The notes beneath the pieces were generated by a model. It was not told the DNA's origin and ran no database searches. It saw only the letters and a program-made list of their open reading frames with translations. From positions 1 through 64,000 of IMG/VR virus record IMGVR_UViG_3300037189_025222: DNA of 64,000 nucleotides. The stretch is one strand, 5' to 3'. The position numbers and the translations under genes are program-made. The stretch comes from a virus. Positions 38,607 through 60,134 of this stretch are shown here, piece by piece (the first letter of the stretch is position 1; every line of letters begins with the position of its first letter).

Positions 38607-39692
38607 ATGATTCCACAGGGTGAGTTGATTTTCTGGGGGCCGAAGCATGAGGACAATCTTCCTATGCCTAGTAGGGAGGATAGGTTGAAGCGGGTGGACT
38701 CTGGCAATCCTTCTAGTCCGTTTAGCCGGTTCGTTGGTAATGAGCGGGCTGTTCGGAAGATGCAGGCTGCTGTGTATAGTGCGTTGGGCCGTCCGAATCA
38801 TATCCAGCGTGATTTGGCGTTTGCCATCTTTGGGCCTGCGTCTAGTGGCAAGACTACTTTGGCTCGGCTTTATGCTGATTCTGTAGAGTTGCCGTTGGTG
38901 GAGGTTAGTCCCAAGAGTATTCGGACTACGGATGATCTTTTGGAGTTCATTCGTGCGACTTTGCTGGAGACAGAGGTTCCGTTGGTGGATTGTGGTACGG
39001 ATCAGTTTGTGTTGCCTCCGATGGTGGTGTTTATTGACGAGGTTCATGCACTGAGTCGTTCGGTGGTGGATGGTCTGTTGAAGGCTACGGAATATAAGGA
39101 TGCCATTCTTGTGACGGACGGTGGTTCAACCGTTGACTGTCATAACGTGACATGGATGATTGCGACAACGGATGAGGGTCGGTTGTTTGATGCGTTCCGT
39201 ACTCGTTTTAGCCCGATTATGTTGCAGTATTTGACTAAGGCCGAAGTGGCGAAGATTGTTAGCATGGCTCATAAGGATTTGCCTTCTGAGGTGTGTATGT
39301 TGGTGGCTCACTATAACAGTCGGATTCCCCGTAAGGCTTTGGAGTTTGCTAGGTACATGAAGATGGTTCGTGATATGCACCCTGAGATGACTTGGGAGGA
39401 CGTTGCCCGTCAGGTTGCTGGTGATGAGGGGATTGACGAGTATGGGATGCAGGAGCTTCATTTGAAGGTCTTGCGGGCTTTGGGTCAGGGGCCGGTTGCT
39501 CGTAATCGTATAAGTTTGGTTGTGGGCAGGAAGATTGAGGAAGTGGAGCGGTACATCATGCCGTGGCTGTTGAGTGAGACAGAGGATCAGCCTGCGATGG
39601 TTACTGTGTCGAGCAAGGGCTATGTGATTACTAGGGCTGGGCTTGACGAATTGGAGAAACGTGGTATAAGCTATGTGGCTGAAGCTGCGTGA
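38607..39692 (+). CDS. RuvB-like AAA+ ATPase, 361 aa
   Basis: Holliday-junction-helicase-like organisation: FVGNERAVRKMQAAVYSAL, Walker A GPASSGKT (76-83), Walker B VFIDEVHAL (~141-149), sensor 1 WMIATTDEGRLFDAFRTRF with the arginine region, then RIPRKALEFARYMKMV and a C-terminal winged-helix-like part (GPVARNRISLVVGRKIEEVERY...KGYVITRAGLDEL). RuvB drives branch migration with RuvA; no RuvA or resolvase is visible nearby. Start set at 38607 behind GCAGGAGG. Overall length (~335-360) is normal for RuvB. The array promoter lies in its last codons. Confidence 0.8.
   Translation: MIPQGELIFWGPKHEDNLPMPSREDRLKRVDSGNPSSPFSRFVGNERAVRKMQAAVYSALGRPNHIQRDLAFAIFGPASSGKTTLARLYADSVELPLVEVSPKSIRTTDDLLEFIRATLLETEVPLVDCGTDQFVLPPMVVFIDEVHALSRSVVDGLLKATEYKDAILVTDGGSTVDCHNVTWMIATTDEGRLFDAFRTRFSPIMLQYLTKAEVAKIVSMAHKDLPSEVCMLVAHYNSRIPRKALEFARYMKMVRDMHPEMTWEDVARQVAGDEGIDEYGMQELHLKVLRALGQGPVARNRISLVVGRKIEEVERYIMPWLLSETEDQPAMVTVSSKGYVITRAGLDELEKRGISYVAEAA
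39643..39670 (+). promoter_or_regulatory. sigma70-like promoter of repeat array 1
   Basis: TTGACG (39643-39648) and TATAAG (39665-39670), 16-nt spacer ending in GTGG. Lies inside the 3' end of the RuvB-like gene and points into the array, which begins 19 bp later. Confidence 0.55.
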
Positions 39693-40425
39693 ACCAATAA
39701 GTTCGATTTTGCACACTGAAGAAGTGAACCACTTCCATAGATTTAGCAAGTTCTGTGAGTGAACCACTATAGGGAATTTTACACAAAGCCGTAGTGAACC
39801 TTGGATGATGATTTTATATTCGCACTGAGTGAACCATTAGAAGAGATTTTACATGCCCCACGAGTGAACCATTGAAGCCGATTTTACATGATGAAATAGT
39901 GAACCACGGTTTAGGATTTTACATTTTGACAGAGTGAACCAGCCTCGAAGATTTTACACTGAAGTTGAGTGAACCAGGGACCGGGATTTTACATGGGATC
40001 CACAGTGAACCAAGTGGTACGATCTTACAGTCAAGAAGAGTGAACCATCAAAAGCAATTTTATAGCGACGTTGAGTGAACCAGACTTTCGGATTTTACAT
40101 CACGACCGAGTGAACCATATCCGCTGATTTAAATAACGGAAAAGAGTGAATCACGCAATACGATTTTTAACACAACGCCCGAGTGAACCAAGAAAACGGA
40201 TTTCAACATAATCCGATAGTGAACCATTGGGCATTTTTTTGCAATGAGAGCGAGTGAACCAAATAGATCGATTTTACATACCGTGCGAGTGAACCAGGGG
40301 AGAAGATTTTATAGGTTTGGAGAGTGAACCGTGTAGATCGATTTAGCATACAGTTCGAGTGAACCAATTCTTCAGATTTTACATGATGAGTAAGTGAACC
40401 ATAAATTTGATTTAGCATAAAGGAA
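39689..40425 (+). repeat. Array of 21 units, 35-bp period, GTGAACCA + GATTTTACA boxes
   Basis: Unit starts (GTGAACC) at 39689, 39724, 39759, 39794, 39829, 39864, 39899, 39934, 39969, 40005, 40040, 40075, 40110, 40146, 40183, 40219, 40254, 40289, 40324, 40359 and 40394: spacing 35 (occasionally 36-37). Each unit is GTGAACCA, ~8 variable bases, GATTTTACAT, ~8 variable bases, GA. The two boxes are conserved; both spacers differ in every unit, so it is not a simple recent tandem duplication. No open reading frame fits. It ends directly in a TTGTACCCTA element at 40426. Confidence 0.95.
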
Positions 40426-40435: not shown

Positions 40436-40499
40436 TATGGATGCTCGGGTAGCTTTGCATACCATGATGTTGGCACTTGGGCGTGAAGGAGCGACTCCG

Positions 40500-40766
40500 A
40501 TGGTCAGGATGGAGTCTGGGTACAGTATCAAGAACAACAAGTTCCTAAAAAGATTAAAGAAAAAGTTTAAGAGGCACGGGCCGTGCAGGGTTCCAGAATA
40601 TGAAGATTATTTTCTTCTAAGTTCGGAACCTTATTTTGTTTATAAATATGCGGAGATTATTGGTGCAAACAAAATGCCTGAGCCTTTGCATCGAAAGATG
40701 TTAAGTTTTGCTATTATGAATCCGAATAATTATTATGTGAAGCGTTATTTAAGTCAAAGGAGTTGA
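40500..40766 (+). CDS. YA-repeat family protein (short form), 88 aa
   Basis: C-terminal half VYKYAEIIGANKMPEPLHRKMLSFAIMNPNNYYVKRYL matches the ends of the proteins at 40771 and 42358 (LPENLHNRMLMMSVMEPNNYWVKRY). The N-terminal half is very basic (NNKFLKRLKKKFKRHG). Start 40500 is chosen for GAAGGAG eight bases upstream; an in-frame ATG at 40437 touches the control element. Confidence 0.65.
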   Translation: MVRMESGYSIKNNKFLKRLKKKFKRHGPCRVPEYEDYFLLSSEPYFVYKYAEIIGANKMPEPLHRKMLSFAIMNPNNYYVKRYLSQRS

Positions 40767-40770
40767 GAAG

Positions 40771-41604
40771 ATGCCTTACCAGCAAAGATTTTTGGTTTTG
40801 GATGGCAGCGAAACTTTTAATTATAATAGGGCTTCTTCTGATGTTAAGAGTAAACAACCAGCGGCTAAGTTTTGTCCCATTCTTCTGAGTGTTCCAGATA
40901 ATATCTTCTCAAATTGTAAAAACATTGAGGATCGTCTTGAAGATTGGGTGAAGAAGGTTTACGCCCAAAAGAATGAATTGCAGCTTTGGTCTGGACATAT
41001 GTTGGTTGTAATGACAGAGGAGCAGTGTAGTTCTAATCATCAGATGAATCTTGTATTTAATAGTTATAATTGGAATAATGTTTTACCTTCTTGGCTGAAT
41101 GTTCCTACTGATGCTACTACAGCAATTACATTTGTTAAGGATGTTGGCGTTAATCTTCCTGAGTTTGAGCCTGTAATTAGTCAAGAATCAAAGACAAGTT
41201 ACGAGTACGCTATTATCTTGAGGAAGAGATTTGAGATGGGAGAACCGGCTATTGCTAAGGATGCTGGTTTGAGTTGTCGTTATGCTAAGGAAATTATTGG
41301 TGGTAGGTTTTTGCTTGGAGAGCCTACTATTGCCCAGCATGAACGTGCTGCTGACTTGTATGCTGAGAAGATCAGGGAGTGGCGTTTGTGGGGAGAGTTC
41401 AGTCATGAAACCCTGATGACGAGTCCGGTTTGGATGTATCATTATGCCAAGGATTTTTGTGGAGGTCGTTTGCCTGAGAATCTCCATAATCGGATGTTGA
41501 TGATGAGTGTGATGGAACCGAATAATTATTGGGTGAAGCGGTATAGTGCCAAGAAGTATCAGAAGAAGAAGCGGGCGCCAAAAGCTAATTTAGAAAATGC
41601 TTGA
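40771..41604 (+). CDS. YA-repeat family protein, 277 aa
   Basis: Residues ~125-275 contain imperfect ~30-35-residue helical repeats of the type S-x-x-YA-x-x-I-x-x-GRF-x-x-GEP-x-IA (YEYAIILRKRFEMGEPAIA, CRYAKEIIGGRFLLGEPTIA), ending LPENLHNRMLMMSVMEPNNYWVKRY. I recall similar repeat proteins in phages, of unknown function. The N-terminal ~120 residues are different and beta-rich. AAGGAG near the start; 4 nt after the preceding gene. Confidence 0.7.
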   Translation: MPYQQRFLVLDGSETFNYNRASSDVKSKQPAAKFCPILLSVPDNIFSNCKNIEDRLEDWVKKVYAQKNELQLWSGHMLVVMTEEQCSSNHQMNLVFNSYNWNNVLPSWLNVPTDATTAITFVKDVGVNLPEFEPVISQESKTSYEYAIILRKRFEMGEPAIAKDAGLSCRYAKEIIGGRFLLGEPTIAQHERAADLYAEKIREWRLWGEFSHETLMTSPVWMYHYAKDFCGGRLPENLHNRMLMMSVMEPNNYWVKRYSAKKYQKKKRAPKANLENA

Positions 41605-41628
41605 CAAGTCTATTATCTGTGGTATAAT
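41601..41628 (+). promoter_or_regulatory. sigma70 promoter of repeat array 2
   Basis: TTGACA (41601-41606), 16-nt spacer ending TGTGG, TATAAT (41623-41628): near-consensus. Transcription should begin at ~41635, i.e. within the first array unit. Confidence 0.75.
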
Positions 41629-41631
41629 GGT

Positions 41632-41781
41632 TTTAACCAAGGTAGTCGATTTTTTAAGTTCAAATAGTGAACCATATTGCCGGATTTTATATCAGGCTGA
41701 AGTGAACCATAGCAAAGGATTTTGCATCGGCTGAAGAGTGAACCATCGCCCAGTGATTTCAACAAGATCAACAAGTGAATC
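41632..41781 (+). repeat. Second 35-bp-period array, 5 units
   Basis: A degenerate first unit (AACCA...GATTTTTTA from 41632), then GTGAACC starts at 41667, 41702, 41738 and GTGAATC at 41775. Same boxes and spacing as array 1; the last box runs into the ATG of the next gene at 41782. Confidence 0.85.
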
Positions 41782-42312
41782 ATGAATCTGAAGTTTGGCA
41801 TTAAACCGAGTGACGACGATTGGACGGCAGAAAAAGAGCTTTCTTATAAAGCTGCTAAGGCTGCTTTTCAAAAGTTTTTTAATGGTGAAAAATTAAGTCG
41901 TGAATTAGAGAAGATTATTGCGTCAGACGCTACTTGGAGCTGTCAGTATGCTGCTGCATTAAAGGATAGGTTTATACTGGGCGAACCTATTATTGCTTCT
42001 AAAGCGAGAACAGCAGGTTGGTATGCTCGTCATATTATCCGGGGTCCGTGGCCTGAAGGCGAGTCTGGAATATCCCAAAGTGCATATTTCGTATGTGCAT
42101 ATATTTGTGATGTTTTAAACGGGAGCAGGGTATCTGATTTAATTCACAGAAATATGTTGGCTTTGCTTATAGAAAACCCATCAGATTATTGGGTGCTTGA
42201 ATATATGCACTATAGAGAATGGCTTGATGGTCACGTTGCAGAGCCTAGTTGGGTTCGTCAGGGAAATTGGAATTATGGCGGGGTTACGCAAGAATATTTA
42301 AATTCGAATTAG
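41782..42312 (+). CDS. YA-repeat family protein, 176 aa
   Basis: Repeats CQYAAALKDRFILGEPIIA, WYARHIIRGPWPEGESGIS and a terminal LIHRNMLALLIENPSDYWVLEYM place it with 40771 and 42358. Its start codon is joined to the last unit of array 2 (GTGAATCATG). Function unknown. Confidence 0.7.
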   Translation: MNLKFGIKPSDDDWTAEKELSYKAAKAAFQKFFNGEKLSRELEKIIASDATWSCQYAAALKDRFILGEPIIASKARTAGWYARHIIRGPWPEGESGISQSAYFVCAYICDVLNGSRVSDLIHRNMLALLIENPSDYWVLEYMHYREWLDGHVAEPSWVRQGNWNYGGVTQEYLNSN

Positions 42313-42322
42313 GGCAAATGAA

Positions 42323-42332
42323 TTGTACCCTA
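42323..42332 (+). promoter_or_regulatory. TTGTACCCTA element
   Basis: Exact copy, 25 nt before the start at 42358, with GAAAGGAG between. Confidence 0.7.
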
Positions 42333-42357
42333 TGAAGTTATCGAAAGGAGATTTCTG

Positions 42358-43077
42358 ATGGACATTCTCACTGATAATTGGGTTCAAGTATTCCCTAATA
42401 TGCTGCATTATGCTTCTAGGACTGGTGGGCGGGTTCCTGAATTTGAGCCGCTGTTTATTCAGGATGCTGATGCTGCTTCTAGCTATGCAGCTGGATCTAT
42501 TCATGGGCGTTGGCCAGAAGCAGAAGAAATTATAGCTACTAATTCTGGTGCTGCTCTTAATTATGCCCGTAAAGTAATTGCGGGTAAGTGGGAACCCGGA
42601 GAGGCTGCTATTGCTACTAATCCTAAAGATAGCTACTGGTATGCCACTTATGTTCTCAAAGGCAGCTTCCCAGAAGGCGAAGCGGAAATTGCTAAACATC
42701 CTGACCTTAGTTTTGATTATGCAAGAAATGTGATTTATGGTCGGTTTATTGCTGGTGAAGCTGAGATTGGCAAGTTAGAAGTCACTGGCTTTAATCCCAA
42801 GATGGCTTTAGATTATATGAATCTTTGGGTGAAGGGTAATTGGTCGGGTTGGACTGAAGATCAGATTCGTGTGTGTCCTTGTTGGCTGTATAACTATGCC
42901 AAGCAGCATTGTAAGGGTAGGCTTCCAGATAATCTTCATAATGCTATGCTGACATTTGGCATGACAATTAATGAGAATTATTGGGTGAAGAAGTATTTTA
43001 AGGCTGCGAAGTACCAGAAGAAGATTAAGCGGCGCAATCCACCGGAGATGGCTGCTCCTATTGTTATCCCTGATTAA
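42358..43077 (+). CDS. YA-repeat family protein, 239 aa
   Basis: At least five tandem helical repeats: SSYAAGSIHGRWPEAEEII, LNYARKVIAGKWEPGEAAIA, YWYATYVLKGSFPEGEAEIA, FDYARNVIYGRFIAGEAEIG, LYNYAKQHCKGRLPDNLHNAM, ending ENYWVKKYF. The clearest member of the family and likely a helical solenoid, hence a protein-binding scaffold; the partner is unknown. AAGGAG before the start. Confidence 0.75.
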   Translation: MDILTDNWVQVFPNMLHYASRTGGRVPEFEPLFIQDADAASSYAAGSIHGRWPEAEEIIATNSGAALNYARKVIAGKWEPGEAAIATNPKDSYWYATYVLKGSFPEGEAEIAKHPDLSFDYARNVIYGRFIAGEAEIGKLEVTGFNPKMALDYMNLWVKGNWSGWTEDQIRVCPCWLYNYAKQHCKGRLPDNLHNAMLTFGMTINENYWVKKYFKAAKYQKKIKRRNPPEMAAPIVIPD

Positions 43078-43273: not shown

Positions 43274-43766
43274 AAAAGTTATTTTTGATAATGACGAACA
43301 TTCTATAACGGTTAAACCCGTTACGTTAATTTTCAATAATACTTATGGGGAGAGTGTATATCCTGAACGGGTAATGATTGATTCAAATATGACTTTGGAT
43401 CATTTTAAAACCCTAAAGGAGATTGATCCTTATACGGCTGCTTTTTTTAAATTTGTTGTGGATGATTATCCTCATCCTGTGATGAAGAGTTTTCTTGAGA
43501 AGTCGGCAATTGGATGTCGTCATTTAATTGGATTGTTTTCTTTGAGCTTGGAGCTGCTGAGTCAACAGAAAAAGTTCGGTTGGAAGTATCCAGAGGCTAA
43601 TCTTCATCCTAGACAACAGTTAAATTTAGCAGATGCTTTGATTGTTTTTGGGCAACCAGAGCGATTTGTTAAATTGGTGAAATATGTGCAAGCTGGGTTC
43701 TTTGACCAGTATCAAATGTGTGCAAAAGAATCTTGGCGTGATGAAGCGTTCAGGGTGATGTCTTGA
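43263..43766 (+). CDS. Hypothetical protein, 167 aa
   Basis: GTG start within the end of the preceding gene. Beta-rich first ~45 residues (SITVKPVTLIFNNTYG), then helical (YTAAFFKFVVDDYPHPVMKSFLEK, CRHLIGLFSLSLELLSQQKK). Not recognised. The promoter of the downstream ncRNA overlaps its last codons. Confidence 0.65.
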   Translation: METEKVIFDNDEHSITVKPVTLIFNNTYGESVYPERVMIDSNMTLDHFKTLKEIDPYTAAFFKFVVDDYPHPVMKSFLEKSAIGCRHLIGLFSLSLELLSQQKKFGWKYPEANLHPRQQLNLADALIVFGQPERFVKLVKYVQAGFFDQYQMCAKESWRDEAFRVMS

Positions 43767-43790
43767 CATTAGTGTTTTCTGTGGTATACT
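43763..43790 (+). promoter_or_regulatory. sigma70 promoter of structured RNA
   Basis: TTGACA (43763-43768), 16-nt spacer ending TGTGG, TATACT (43785-43790). Same architecture as the two array promoters. Confidence 0.75.
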
Positions 43791-43796
43791 GATCGG

Positions 43797-43993
43797 GCCG
43801 ATCAAAACTTACCGTGCTTGTGCTGCTATGGCATCCAGCAGAAACGGTGACTCAGCGGAAGGTAGTCGGCTGATCTGCCCGTAAGACTCCGGGCAGTTAG
43901 CTAAACGTCCGCAGTTCATAACACATTCACCCTCCGTCCTTTCTAATGTGTGTATGAATAGGTCTGCCTCCTCAAAAGAGGCAGACTTTTTTT
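43797..43993 (+). ncRNA. Structured noncoding RNA, ~197 nt, unknown family
   Basis: Framed by a near-consensus sigma70 promoter and a strong intrinsic terminator, with no translatable frame on this strand. Stems visible by eye: CTGCT/AGCAG (~43822-43841), CTGCCCG/CGGGCAG (43876-43898), ACACATT/AATGTGT (43921-43951) and the terminator stem GTCTGCCTC/GAGGCAGAC (43962-43986). I do not recognise 6S, tmRNA or any riboswitch. It precedes a small acidic gene and an IS110-transposase-like gene. Confidence 0.7.
43962..43993 (+). terminator. Intrinsic terminator
   Basis: GTCTGCCTC-CTCAAAA-GAGGCAGAC followed by seven T. Ends the structured RNA; a TTGTACCCTA element begins in the T-run. Confidence 0.9.
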
Positions 43994-44001
43994 GTACCCT
44001 A
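43992..44001 (+). promoter_or_regulatory. TTGTACCCTA element
   Basis: Exact copy immediately after the terminator, 35 nt before the start at 44037, so it must provide transcription of the next unit or act on it. Confidence 0.75.
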
Positions 44002-44213: not shown

Positions 44214-45125
44214 ATGGGTAAGGCTAAGAAGGCGACTTTAAGTGAAGATGCAATTGAAGTTTTGAGTGGTCTTGGGGAGATTACTCGACTTGATAAAGAT
44301 TTGAAAAAGCTAATTCGAACTTTGAATCGTGATGAGGTTCGGTGCATTGTGAACTATTATTACAATGTGCAGGAGAACCGGATGAGGTCTTCTAAGCAGA
44401 TTGATGCTGCCAGTAAGGCTGGTACTCCGCATGATCTGATGGTTTATCTGAATGCCCAAACTCAAGTTTTGGAAAATCAGATTGCTAAGGCTATGGATGA
44501 GTGGACTGAGGGGCATCCTGTAGCTAAGGCTTTGAAGGACAATGTTTATGGTATTGGCCCGATTATTTCAGCGGGTCTGGTTGCTCATTTTGATATTCGT
44601 CGGGCTGCTACTGCTGGTGCATTCTGGCGATATGCTGGTCTTGACCCCACATCTGAGTGGAACAAGGGTGAGAAGCGGCCTTGGAATGCAGCTTTGAAAA
44701 CTTTGTGTTGGAAGGTCGGCCAGAGTTTCATGAAGTTCTCTAATGCTACTGATAAAGATACCGGGGCAGCTAAGTGCTTTTACGGTGATCTTTATCGTCA
44801 GAAGAAGGCTGAATTGGTTGCTAAGAATCAGGGTGGTGGATTTAAGGGTCTGGCGGATAGTGTGTTGAAGGCTAAGAAGTTTCGTGATGTCGCAACTAAA
44901 GCAAAATATGAATCAGGGATGCTTCCTGATGGTCATATTGATGCTATGGCTCGTCGCTGGGCTGTGAAGCTGTTTCTGAGTAATCTGCATGAACTTTGGT
45001 GTGCAGCAGAGGGAATTCCGTGTCCTCGGCCTTATTCGATGGCGATTCAGGGCCATGCTCATTACATCATGCAGCCTGAACTGGCTGATTTGATTAATGT
45101 TTGGAAGAATGAAGCTAGGATTTAA
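44214..45125 (+). CDS. IS110-transposase C-terminal-domain-like protein, 303 aa
   Basis: Residues ~108-170 (VYGIGPIISAGLVAHFDIRR ... AGAFWRYAGLDPTSEWNKGEK ... LKTLCWKVGQSFMKF) follow the Transposase_20 pattern of IS110/IS116 elements: helix-hairpin-helix GIGP, then F-W-x-YAGLDP, then an LxxxxWKxG helix. The N-terminal DEDD/RuvC-like nuclease domain of true IS110 transposases is absent, replaced by ~105 helical residues, and no terminal repeats are visible. It looks like a domesticated phage DNA-binding protein rather than an active transposase. AAAGGAG before the start. Confidence 0.7.
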   Translation: MGKAKKATLSEDAIEVLSGLGEITRLDKDLKKLIRTLNRDEVRCIVNYYYNVQENRMRSSKQIDAASKAGTPHDLMVYLNAQTQVLENQIAKAMDEWTEGHPVAKALKDNVYGIGPIISAGLVAHFDIRRAATAGAFWRYAGLDPTSEWNKGEKRPWNAALKTLCWKVGQSFMKFSNATDKDTGAAKCFYGDLYRQKKAELVAKNQGGGFKGLADSVLKAKKFRDVATKAKYESGMLPDGHIDAMARRWAVKLFLSNLHELWCAAEGIPCPRPYSMAIQGHAHYIMQPELADLINVWKNEARI

Positions 45126-59865: not shown

Positions 59866-60134
59866 GGAAGCGTAGCTCAGTTGGTAGAGCATCGGACTTC
59901 AAATAGGAGTGCTTATCGGGAAACTGATAAAGTAGAACTGCTCAAATTCGGTGAACGCTTAACTGCCAATACCGAGCCAAGCCTAGAAATAGGAAGGTGT
60001 AGAGACTTGACGGGCAGCACCTAAAGTTGAAAAACAATGGTGAAGGTAAAGTCCAGACCACAAACAGAAATGGTAACGAAAGTTATAGTGGTAAGTTAAT
60101 CCGTTGGTCCTGGGTTCGAGTCCCAGCGCTTCCA
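59866..60134 (+). tRNA. tRNA-Lys(TTT) interrupted by a group I intron
   Basis: Exons 59866-59899 and 60096-60134. Spliced cloverleaf: acceptor GGAAGCG/CGCTTCC, D arm GCTCAGTTGGTAGAGC, anticodon arm TCGGA-CTTTTAA-TCCGT (anticodon TTT, reads AAA), T arm CTGGG-TTCGAGT-CCCAG. The intron falls after the first anticodon base. Read unspliced, the loop would mimic other anticodons, so automated calls may be wrong. Confidence 0.9.
59900..60095 (+). ncRNA. Group I intron (IC3-like), 196 nt
   Basis: Core elements in order: P AAATTCGGTGAACGC, Q AATACCGAGCC, R GTGTAGAGACTTGACGGGCA and S AAGGTAAAGTCCAGACC. P7 pairs AGACT with AGTCC. P1 is formed by exon ACTT and internal guide GAGT with the U-G pair at the 5' splice site; the intron ends in G60095. 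The arrangement closely resembles the small self-splicing intron of Azoarcus tRNA-Ile as I remember it. No endonuclease gene inside. Confidence 0.9.

What the first reader, a model, noticed from the sequence alone, without database searches (positions are those of the whole stretch)
39689..40425. 21-unit array of 35-bp repeats with two conserved boxes and two non-conserved spacers
GTGAACCA and GATTTTACA(T) alternate with ~8-nt spacers that differ in every unit, at a nearly constant 35-bp period over 740 bp. Constant box spacing with diverged spacers implies selection on a repeated binding or RNA unit rather than recent slippage. It is not a standard CRISPR (repeat parts 8-10 nt, spacers 8 nt), and 35 is not a multiple of 3. 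Options: iterons for replication or partition; a landing array for a DNA-binding protein; a transcribed repeat RNA (a promoter with a 16-nt spacer sits 19 bp before unit 1). The neighbour is a RuvB-like ATPase.
Basis: seen in the sequence. Interest (0 to 1): 0.92.

Follow-up and report, generated by a model that had tools for sequence, protein, structure and literature searches.

The report
Jumbo-phage TIGR guide-RNA array with TasA
The repeats are a guide-RNA array of the recently described TIGR-Tas kind, carried by a very large bacterial virus together with the nuclease-free protein TasA that such RNAs are thought to steer to DNA; the kind is known, but what it naturally targets is not.

Summary
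In detail: 21 units at a 35-nt period (39689-40425), two conserved boxes (GAGTGAACCA, GATTTTACA) and two 8-nt spacers with no more identity than random sequence. Three sister phages have 36-nt units; here the loop repeat is one base shorter. Of 90 tasA loci, 82 have such an array, against 2 of 228 control loci. Two edge-repeat base pairs covary across families, as expected of an RNA. Among 897 spacer pairs, related pairs are shared by descent in exact register, sometimes with A and B exchanged (9 against 0.05 expected). That fits contiguous two-strand recognition and argues against CRISPR-like capture. No target was found in the phage, its kin, sampled viral contigs or Microcystis. Best mechanism: TasA-tigRNA binds double-stranded DNA of other genomes without cutting, blocking transcription or replication. 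Class membership is near certain; the role is inferred. New member of a known kind.

The parts
39643..39670 (+). sigma70-like promoter TTGACG-16-TATAAG before array a, inside the 3' end of the AAA gene
   Evidence: read from sequence
39687..40425 (+). TIGR array a: 20 complete units plus one truncated; edge repeat GAGTGAACCA, spacer A 8 nt, loop repeat GATTTTACA, spacer B 8 nt. The TGA of the first edge repeat is the stop codon of the upstream gene
41601..41628 (+). sigma70-like promoter TTGACA-16-TATAAT of array b
   Evidence: read from sequence
41632..41785 (+). TIGR array b: 5'-truncated edge repeat directly after the promoter, 3 full units, last edge repeat overlapping the ATG of the next gene (41782)
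44214..45125 (+). tasA, 303 aa, Nop-domain TIGR-associated protein without a nuclease domain
   Evidence: NCBIfam NF052498 E 6e-52; PDB TasR 9mty E 1e-11 and TasH by sequence; AlphaFold model pLDDT 82, top Foldseek hits TasR and TasH, then IS110 family
43763..43994 (+). possible small RNA gene just upstream of tasA (TTGACA-16-TATACT, then terminator hairpin and T-run); link to the system unproven
   Evidence: read from sequence; no Rfam match; absent from relatives

Best explanation
This is a TIGR-TasA system of a jumbo phage. The arrays are transcribed from their own promoters as pre-tigRNA. Each 35-nt unit becomes one tigRNA whose edge and loop repeats (box C/D-like) are held by a TasA dimer. 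Spacer A pairs with one strand and spacer B with the other strand of a contiguous 16-bp target reading A followed by the reverse complement of B. TasA has no nuclease, so bound complexes should unwind and bend the DNA and block transcription or replication rather than cut. Targets are most likely genes of other genomes in the same cell (rival mobile elements, or the host), not the phage itself. Shown here: array anatomy, tasA identity and fold, the association, RNA-type covariation, sharing of spacer pairs in exact register including A/B exchange, and absence of self targets. Inferred: transcription, processing, binding, blocking and the nature of the target.
For: Protein: NCBIfam TIGR_Tas E 6e-52, matched by all 15 aligned homologues; TasR/TasH by sequence and by fold. 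Array: dual repeats with 8-nt spacers match the published definition (PMC12045711). Association: 82 of 90 tasA loci have a period-36 array, 2 of 228 control loci. RNA: two edge-repeat pairs covary across 8 family consensuses, 100% paired, 7 double changes, 0 of 500 shuffles; repeat ends covary between edge and loop (CCG with CCG). Two-strand target: spacer pairs related with A and B exchanged, 9 against 0.05 expected, none in the wrong geometry; shared pairs lie in exact register. No self targets: 0 exact and 7 one-mismatch hits against 8-18 in shuffles.
Against: No target could be identified. Nothing shows transcription, processing or binding for this phage. Two-strand contiguous targeting was shown experimentally for TasR and TasH, not TasA. 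The spacers could also serve a role other than DNA binding. The third-codon signal that suggests coding targets is modest (p 0.0075 in this family, 0.06 over all sites, none in family F2).
Confidence: 0.8

Rival explanations
1. Same TIGR-TasA system, but it regulates the phage's own genes, for example those next to the arrays, by binding phage DNA.
For: The arrays lie between genes that look like one paralogous family, and edge repeats abut start codons.
Against: No exact A.rc(B) site with gap 0-2 in the phage or three relatives; one-mismatch hits are not above shuffled pairings. Over 897 spacer pairs, matches in TIGR phages' own sequence do not exceed shuffles (46 against 55-77).
Confidence: 0.08
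2. Iterons or another array of double-stranded protein-binding sites for replication or partition.
For: Constant spacing, imperfect palindrome GTGAAC in box 1, a clamp-loader-like neighbour.
Against: Two different alternating boxes with fully diverged spacers and association with tasA across families. Spacer pairs are conserved by descent, which a pure box array would not need.
Confidence: 0.02
3. TIGR-TasA guides act as box C/D-like guides on RNA (host rRNA or mRNA) rather than DNA.
For: Nop domain and box C/D-like guide architecture; no nuclease in TasA.
Against: Exchange of A and B keeps the same duplex target only in the A.rc(B) two-strand geometry, which a single RNA strand does not offer. 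TasR did not act on RNA. A fibrillarin-like partner was not sought.
Confidence: 0.07
4. Degenerate minisatellite or slippage product without function.
For: Tandem repeats with a few indels.
Against: Boxes conserved while spacers are random; same design with covarying boxes in many phages.
Confidence: 0.01

Closest known systems
TIGR-TasA dual-repeat systems (Faure et al. 2025, PMC12045711)
   Same: Solo Nop-domain TasA; alternating edge and loop repeats; two short spacers per unit; phage location; arrays on the tasA strand within a few kb
   Different: 35-nt units because the loop repeat is 9 nt; spacers 8 nt; array split into two, both upstream of tasA with other genes between; no terminator directly after the arrays
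TIGR-TasR and TIGR-TasH (PDB 9mty, 9w04, 21kl)
   Same: Nop fold with coiled coil, by sequence and Foldseek
   Different: No RuvC or HNH domain, so no cutting expected
IS110 bridge-RNA recombinases (IS621, ISCro4)
   Same: RNA-binding Nop-like region (weak NCBIfam and Foldseek matches)
   Different: No DEDD/RuvC recombinase domain, no bridge RNA, long tandem array
CRISPR arrays
   Same: Tandem repeats with unique spacers, probably guide RNA
   Different: Two alternating 9-10-nt repeats and paired 8-nt spacers; no sign of spacer capture

Membership tests
TIGR-Tas, dual-repeat type | Two alternating 8-12-nt repeats separated by about 9-nt spacers (8 in SpTIGR) | tested here: met
   10-nt edge, 9-nt loop, 8+8-nt spacers (definition)
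TIGR-Tas, dual-repeat type | Nop-domain Tas protein encoded nearby | tested here: met
   tasA 44214-45125:
TIGR-Tas, dual-repeat type | Edge repeat able to form covarying base pairs; box C/D motifs covary between edge and loop | tested here: met
   (2 pairs, 100% paired, 7 double changes); CCG ends shared by edge and loop in all 6 arrays that have them
TIGR-Tas, dual-repeat type | Starts with 5'-truncated edge, ends with 3'-truncated edge and terminator | tested here: inconclusive
   Array b starts truncated right after its promoter; neither array is followed by a terminator in the sequence read
TIGR-Tas, dual-repeat type | Processing to unit-length tigRNA bound by Tas | not testable with these tools
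   needs RNA-seq and pull-down
TIGR-Tas, dual-repeat type | Tandem spacers pair with opposite strands of one DNA target | tested here: inconclusive
   Indirect support only: A/B exchange in exact register; no target found
TasA subtype | No RuvC or HNH nuclease domain | tested here: met
   303 aa, no Pfam nuclease, model aligns to solved TasR/TasH chains
TIGR stem-loop arrays | Palindromic hairpins in place of edge repeats | tested here: not met
   Array RNA folds no better than shuffles, z +1.23; edge repeat is conserved, not variable palindromes
CRISPR-Cas | Single 23-50-nt repeat with cas genes | tested here: not met
   Two short repeats; no cas match among the neighbours scanned
Iterons | Identical repeats bound by a Rep protein at an origin | tested here: not met
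   Half of every unit is unconserved; array tracks tasA across phages

The most novel reading that the evidence does not exclude
TIGR-TasA guides are not captured but evolve by descent: unit duplication, point mutation and exchange of spacers A and B, with mutations following synonymous variation in conserved protein-coding targets of competing genomes, so that one phage carries several allele-specific guides for one site. This would be a nuclease-free, slowly retargeted gene-silencing system used between mobile elements.
Probability: 0.3. Interest if true: 0.8.

Novelty: new member of a known kind. Interest (0 to 1): 0.5.

Why it matters
The natural role and targets of TIGR-Tas, above all of the common nuclease-free TasA, are open questions in the discovery paper. 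This locus and its three sisters give a comparable set of arrays. Sharing of spacer pairs in exact register, and exchange of A and B, is natural-sequence evidence for the two-strand target geometry found in vitro. The absence of shifted overlaps speaks against repeated capture. The 16-bp candidate targets with their allelic variants are now defined, so the targets can be sought in the metagenomes the phages come from.

Tried and rejected
Self-targeting: tested and rejected. Large contigs hit by two alleles of one site (185 kb and 160 kb) were fetched and show no further matches; a virion gene hit twice (L230, L232) is not supported by other spacers. Host targeting in Microcystis, host of the isolate phage Mvi-JY20 which also has tasA and an array: 4 of 8 spacer pairs tested in M. 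viridis and M. wesenbergii, best 2 mismatches of 18, more loose hits than the reversed-pattern control, so inconclusive. Positional T bias at spacer B position 4 in this family is not general. Peptide motifs read from spacer alleles were not found in the relatives' own genes beyond a few scattered hits. Spacer G+C (47%) differs from the phage (36%), but spacers lie near 41-60% in all families, so this says little. Accessory RNA: the RNA-gene-like segment before tasA is absent from relatives.

Full report
What is there. Array a has 21 units from 39689 to 40425. Written as the TIGR unit it is edge repeat GAGTGAACCA, spacer A (8 nt), loop repeat GATTTTACA, spacer B (8 nt), 35 nt in all. Box columns carry 1.0-2.5 bits, spacer columns mostly under 0.2 bit, and spacer identity equals the random expectation. 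Array b, with a 5'-truncated first unit and three full units, lies at 41632-41785, directly after a good sigma70-like promoter. The first edge repeat of array a contains the stop codon of the upstream gene, and the last edge repeat of array b overlaps the start codon of the next gene (sequence).

The protein. The ORF 44214-45125 matches the NCBIfam model for the TIGR-Tas protein at E 6e-52, far above its cut-off, and IS110 only weakly. It matches solved TasR and TasH by sequence. Its AlphaFold model (mean pLDDT 82) has TasR and TasH as the only PDB matches below 0.001, followed by IS110-family recombinases. It is 303 aa long with no nuclease match in Pfam. It is therefore TasA in the sense of Faure et al. 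2025 (PMC12045711).

The genome. The window belongs to a 146-kb virus record that appears to be contained in a 381-kb jumbo-phage contig (both ends and the tasA region are identical). Three further large phages (188-323 kb) have TasA at 63-64% identity, with arrays of 19, about 46 and 18 units using the same edge repeat but a 10-nt loop repeat GATTTTAACA, hence 36-nt units. The period of 35 in the window is thus a one-base shortening of the canonical unit.

The family. A scan with a TasA alignment found 393 relatives and kept 80 loci. With the earlier ones, 82 of 90 loci have a chain of at least six period-36 repeats, against 2 of 228 control loci from the same collection. Median array size is 18 units. 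Some of these loci are near-duplicates. Edge repeats have the form GA-N1N2-GA-n2n1-CA; the two pairs form in all eight family consensuses with seven double changes and no shuffle as good. This agrees with the paired edge repeat reported for TasR and indicates that the box acts as RNA.

Spacer evolution. Among 897 distinct spacer pairs, 113 comparisons differ at two or fewer of 16 positions (0.25 expected), and nine more do so only after A and B are exchanged (0.05 expected); the wrong geometry gives none. One exchange involves the window itself: unit 41667 (TATTGCCG / TCAGGCTG) and the sister-phage unit TCAGACTG / TACTGCCG. Shared pairs occur in exact register; shifted overlaps do not exceed chance, apart from two exchanged pairs at a shift of two (0.3 expected). 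So spacer pairs appear to be inherited and modified, and a pair with A and B exchanged is kept, as expected if both orders name the same duplex DNA site. In this family, differences between alleles fall on one codon phase more than expected at gap 0 (p 0.0075) but not at gap 1 or 2. A second family shows no such effect, and the pooled result is marginal. Two units of the window array (40254 and 40324) are such a pair: their targets AATAGATCGCACGGTA and TGTAGATCGAACTGTA read as [I/V]DRTV in one frame. The phase test was devised after seeing the first examples, so it should be treated as a lead.

Targets. The phage, its relatives and other TIGR phages hold no excess of matching sites. Five scans of the viral collection gave no target supported by a second spacer. 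Microcystis phage Mvi-JY20, with a known host, has tasA and an array of 9-nt spacers ending in a terminator. It has no self target, and four of its eight pairs have no close match in two Microcystis genomes. The natural target remains unknown.

Mechanism. Established for TasR and TasH: tigRNA guides pair with both strands of a contiguous target; the TasR structure shows bent DNA. For TasA without a nuclease, the most economical mechanism is guided binding that blocks transcription or replication of a competing genome or a host gene. The paper itself suggests this kind of role. Membership in TIGR-Tas is close to certain (about 0.97); the blocking role is a judgement of about 0.55.

Noticed in passing
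window 38565, 40426, 42323, 43992, 45583, 46027, 47824, 60846, 62997 (+ strand): Motif TTGTACCCTAT(A), all on the + strand, often shortly before a start codon; the 12-mer TTGTACCCTATA occurs 17 times in the 381-kb contig, all +, and never in relatives G002-G004. Looks like a phage-specific promoter or leader; one copy abuts the end of array a.
   Followed up: partly
window 43763-43994: RNA-gene-like segment with promoter and terminator just before tasA; no Rfam match, absent from relatives.
   Followed up: partly
window 59889-60076: Group I intron (RF00028, 52 bits).
   Followed up: no
window 40437-43074: Four neighbouring proteins that look related by eye (shared ...NNYWVKRY... ends) between the arrays and tasA, no Pfam or PHROG match.
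   Followed up: partly
L040 11180-11290 (G001 171180-171290): A solitary TIGR unit directly before an ATG elsewhere in the jumbo phage.
   Followed up: no
G002a 35559 and window 41667; G002a 35487 and G003a 115588; L011 11278 and L012 2583: Spacers A and B exchanged between related units; no simple rearrangement explains it.
   Followed up: partly
G003 114424 onward; likewise G002 and G004: TasA of the sister phages seems to have an in-frame N-terminal CPTCGKG extension that the window TasA lacks (sequences, read by eye).
   Followed up: no
G001 184452-185981: Protein that looks ParB-like at its N-terminus by eye, far from tasA; no PHROG match. Of interest because some TasA loci pair with ParB-like genes.
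   Followed up: no
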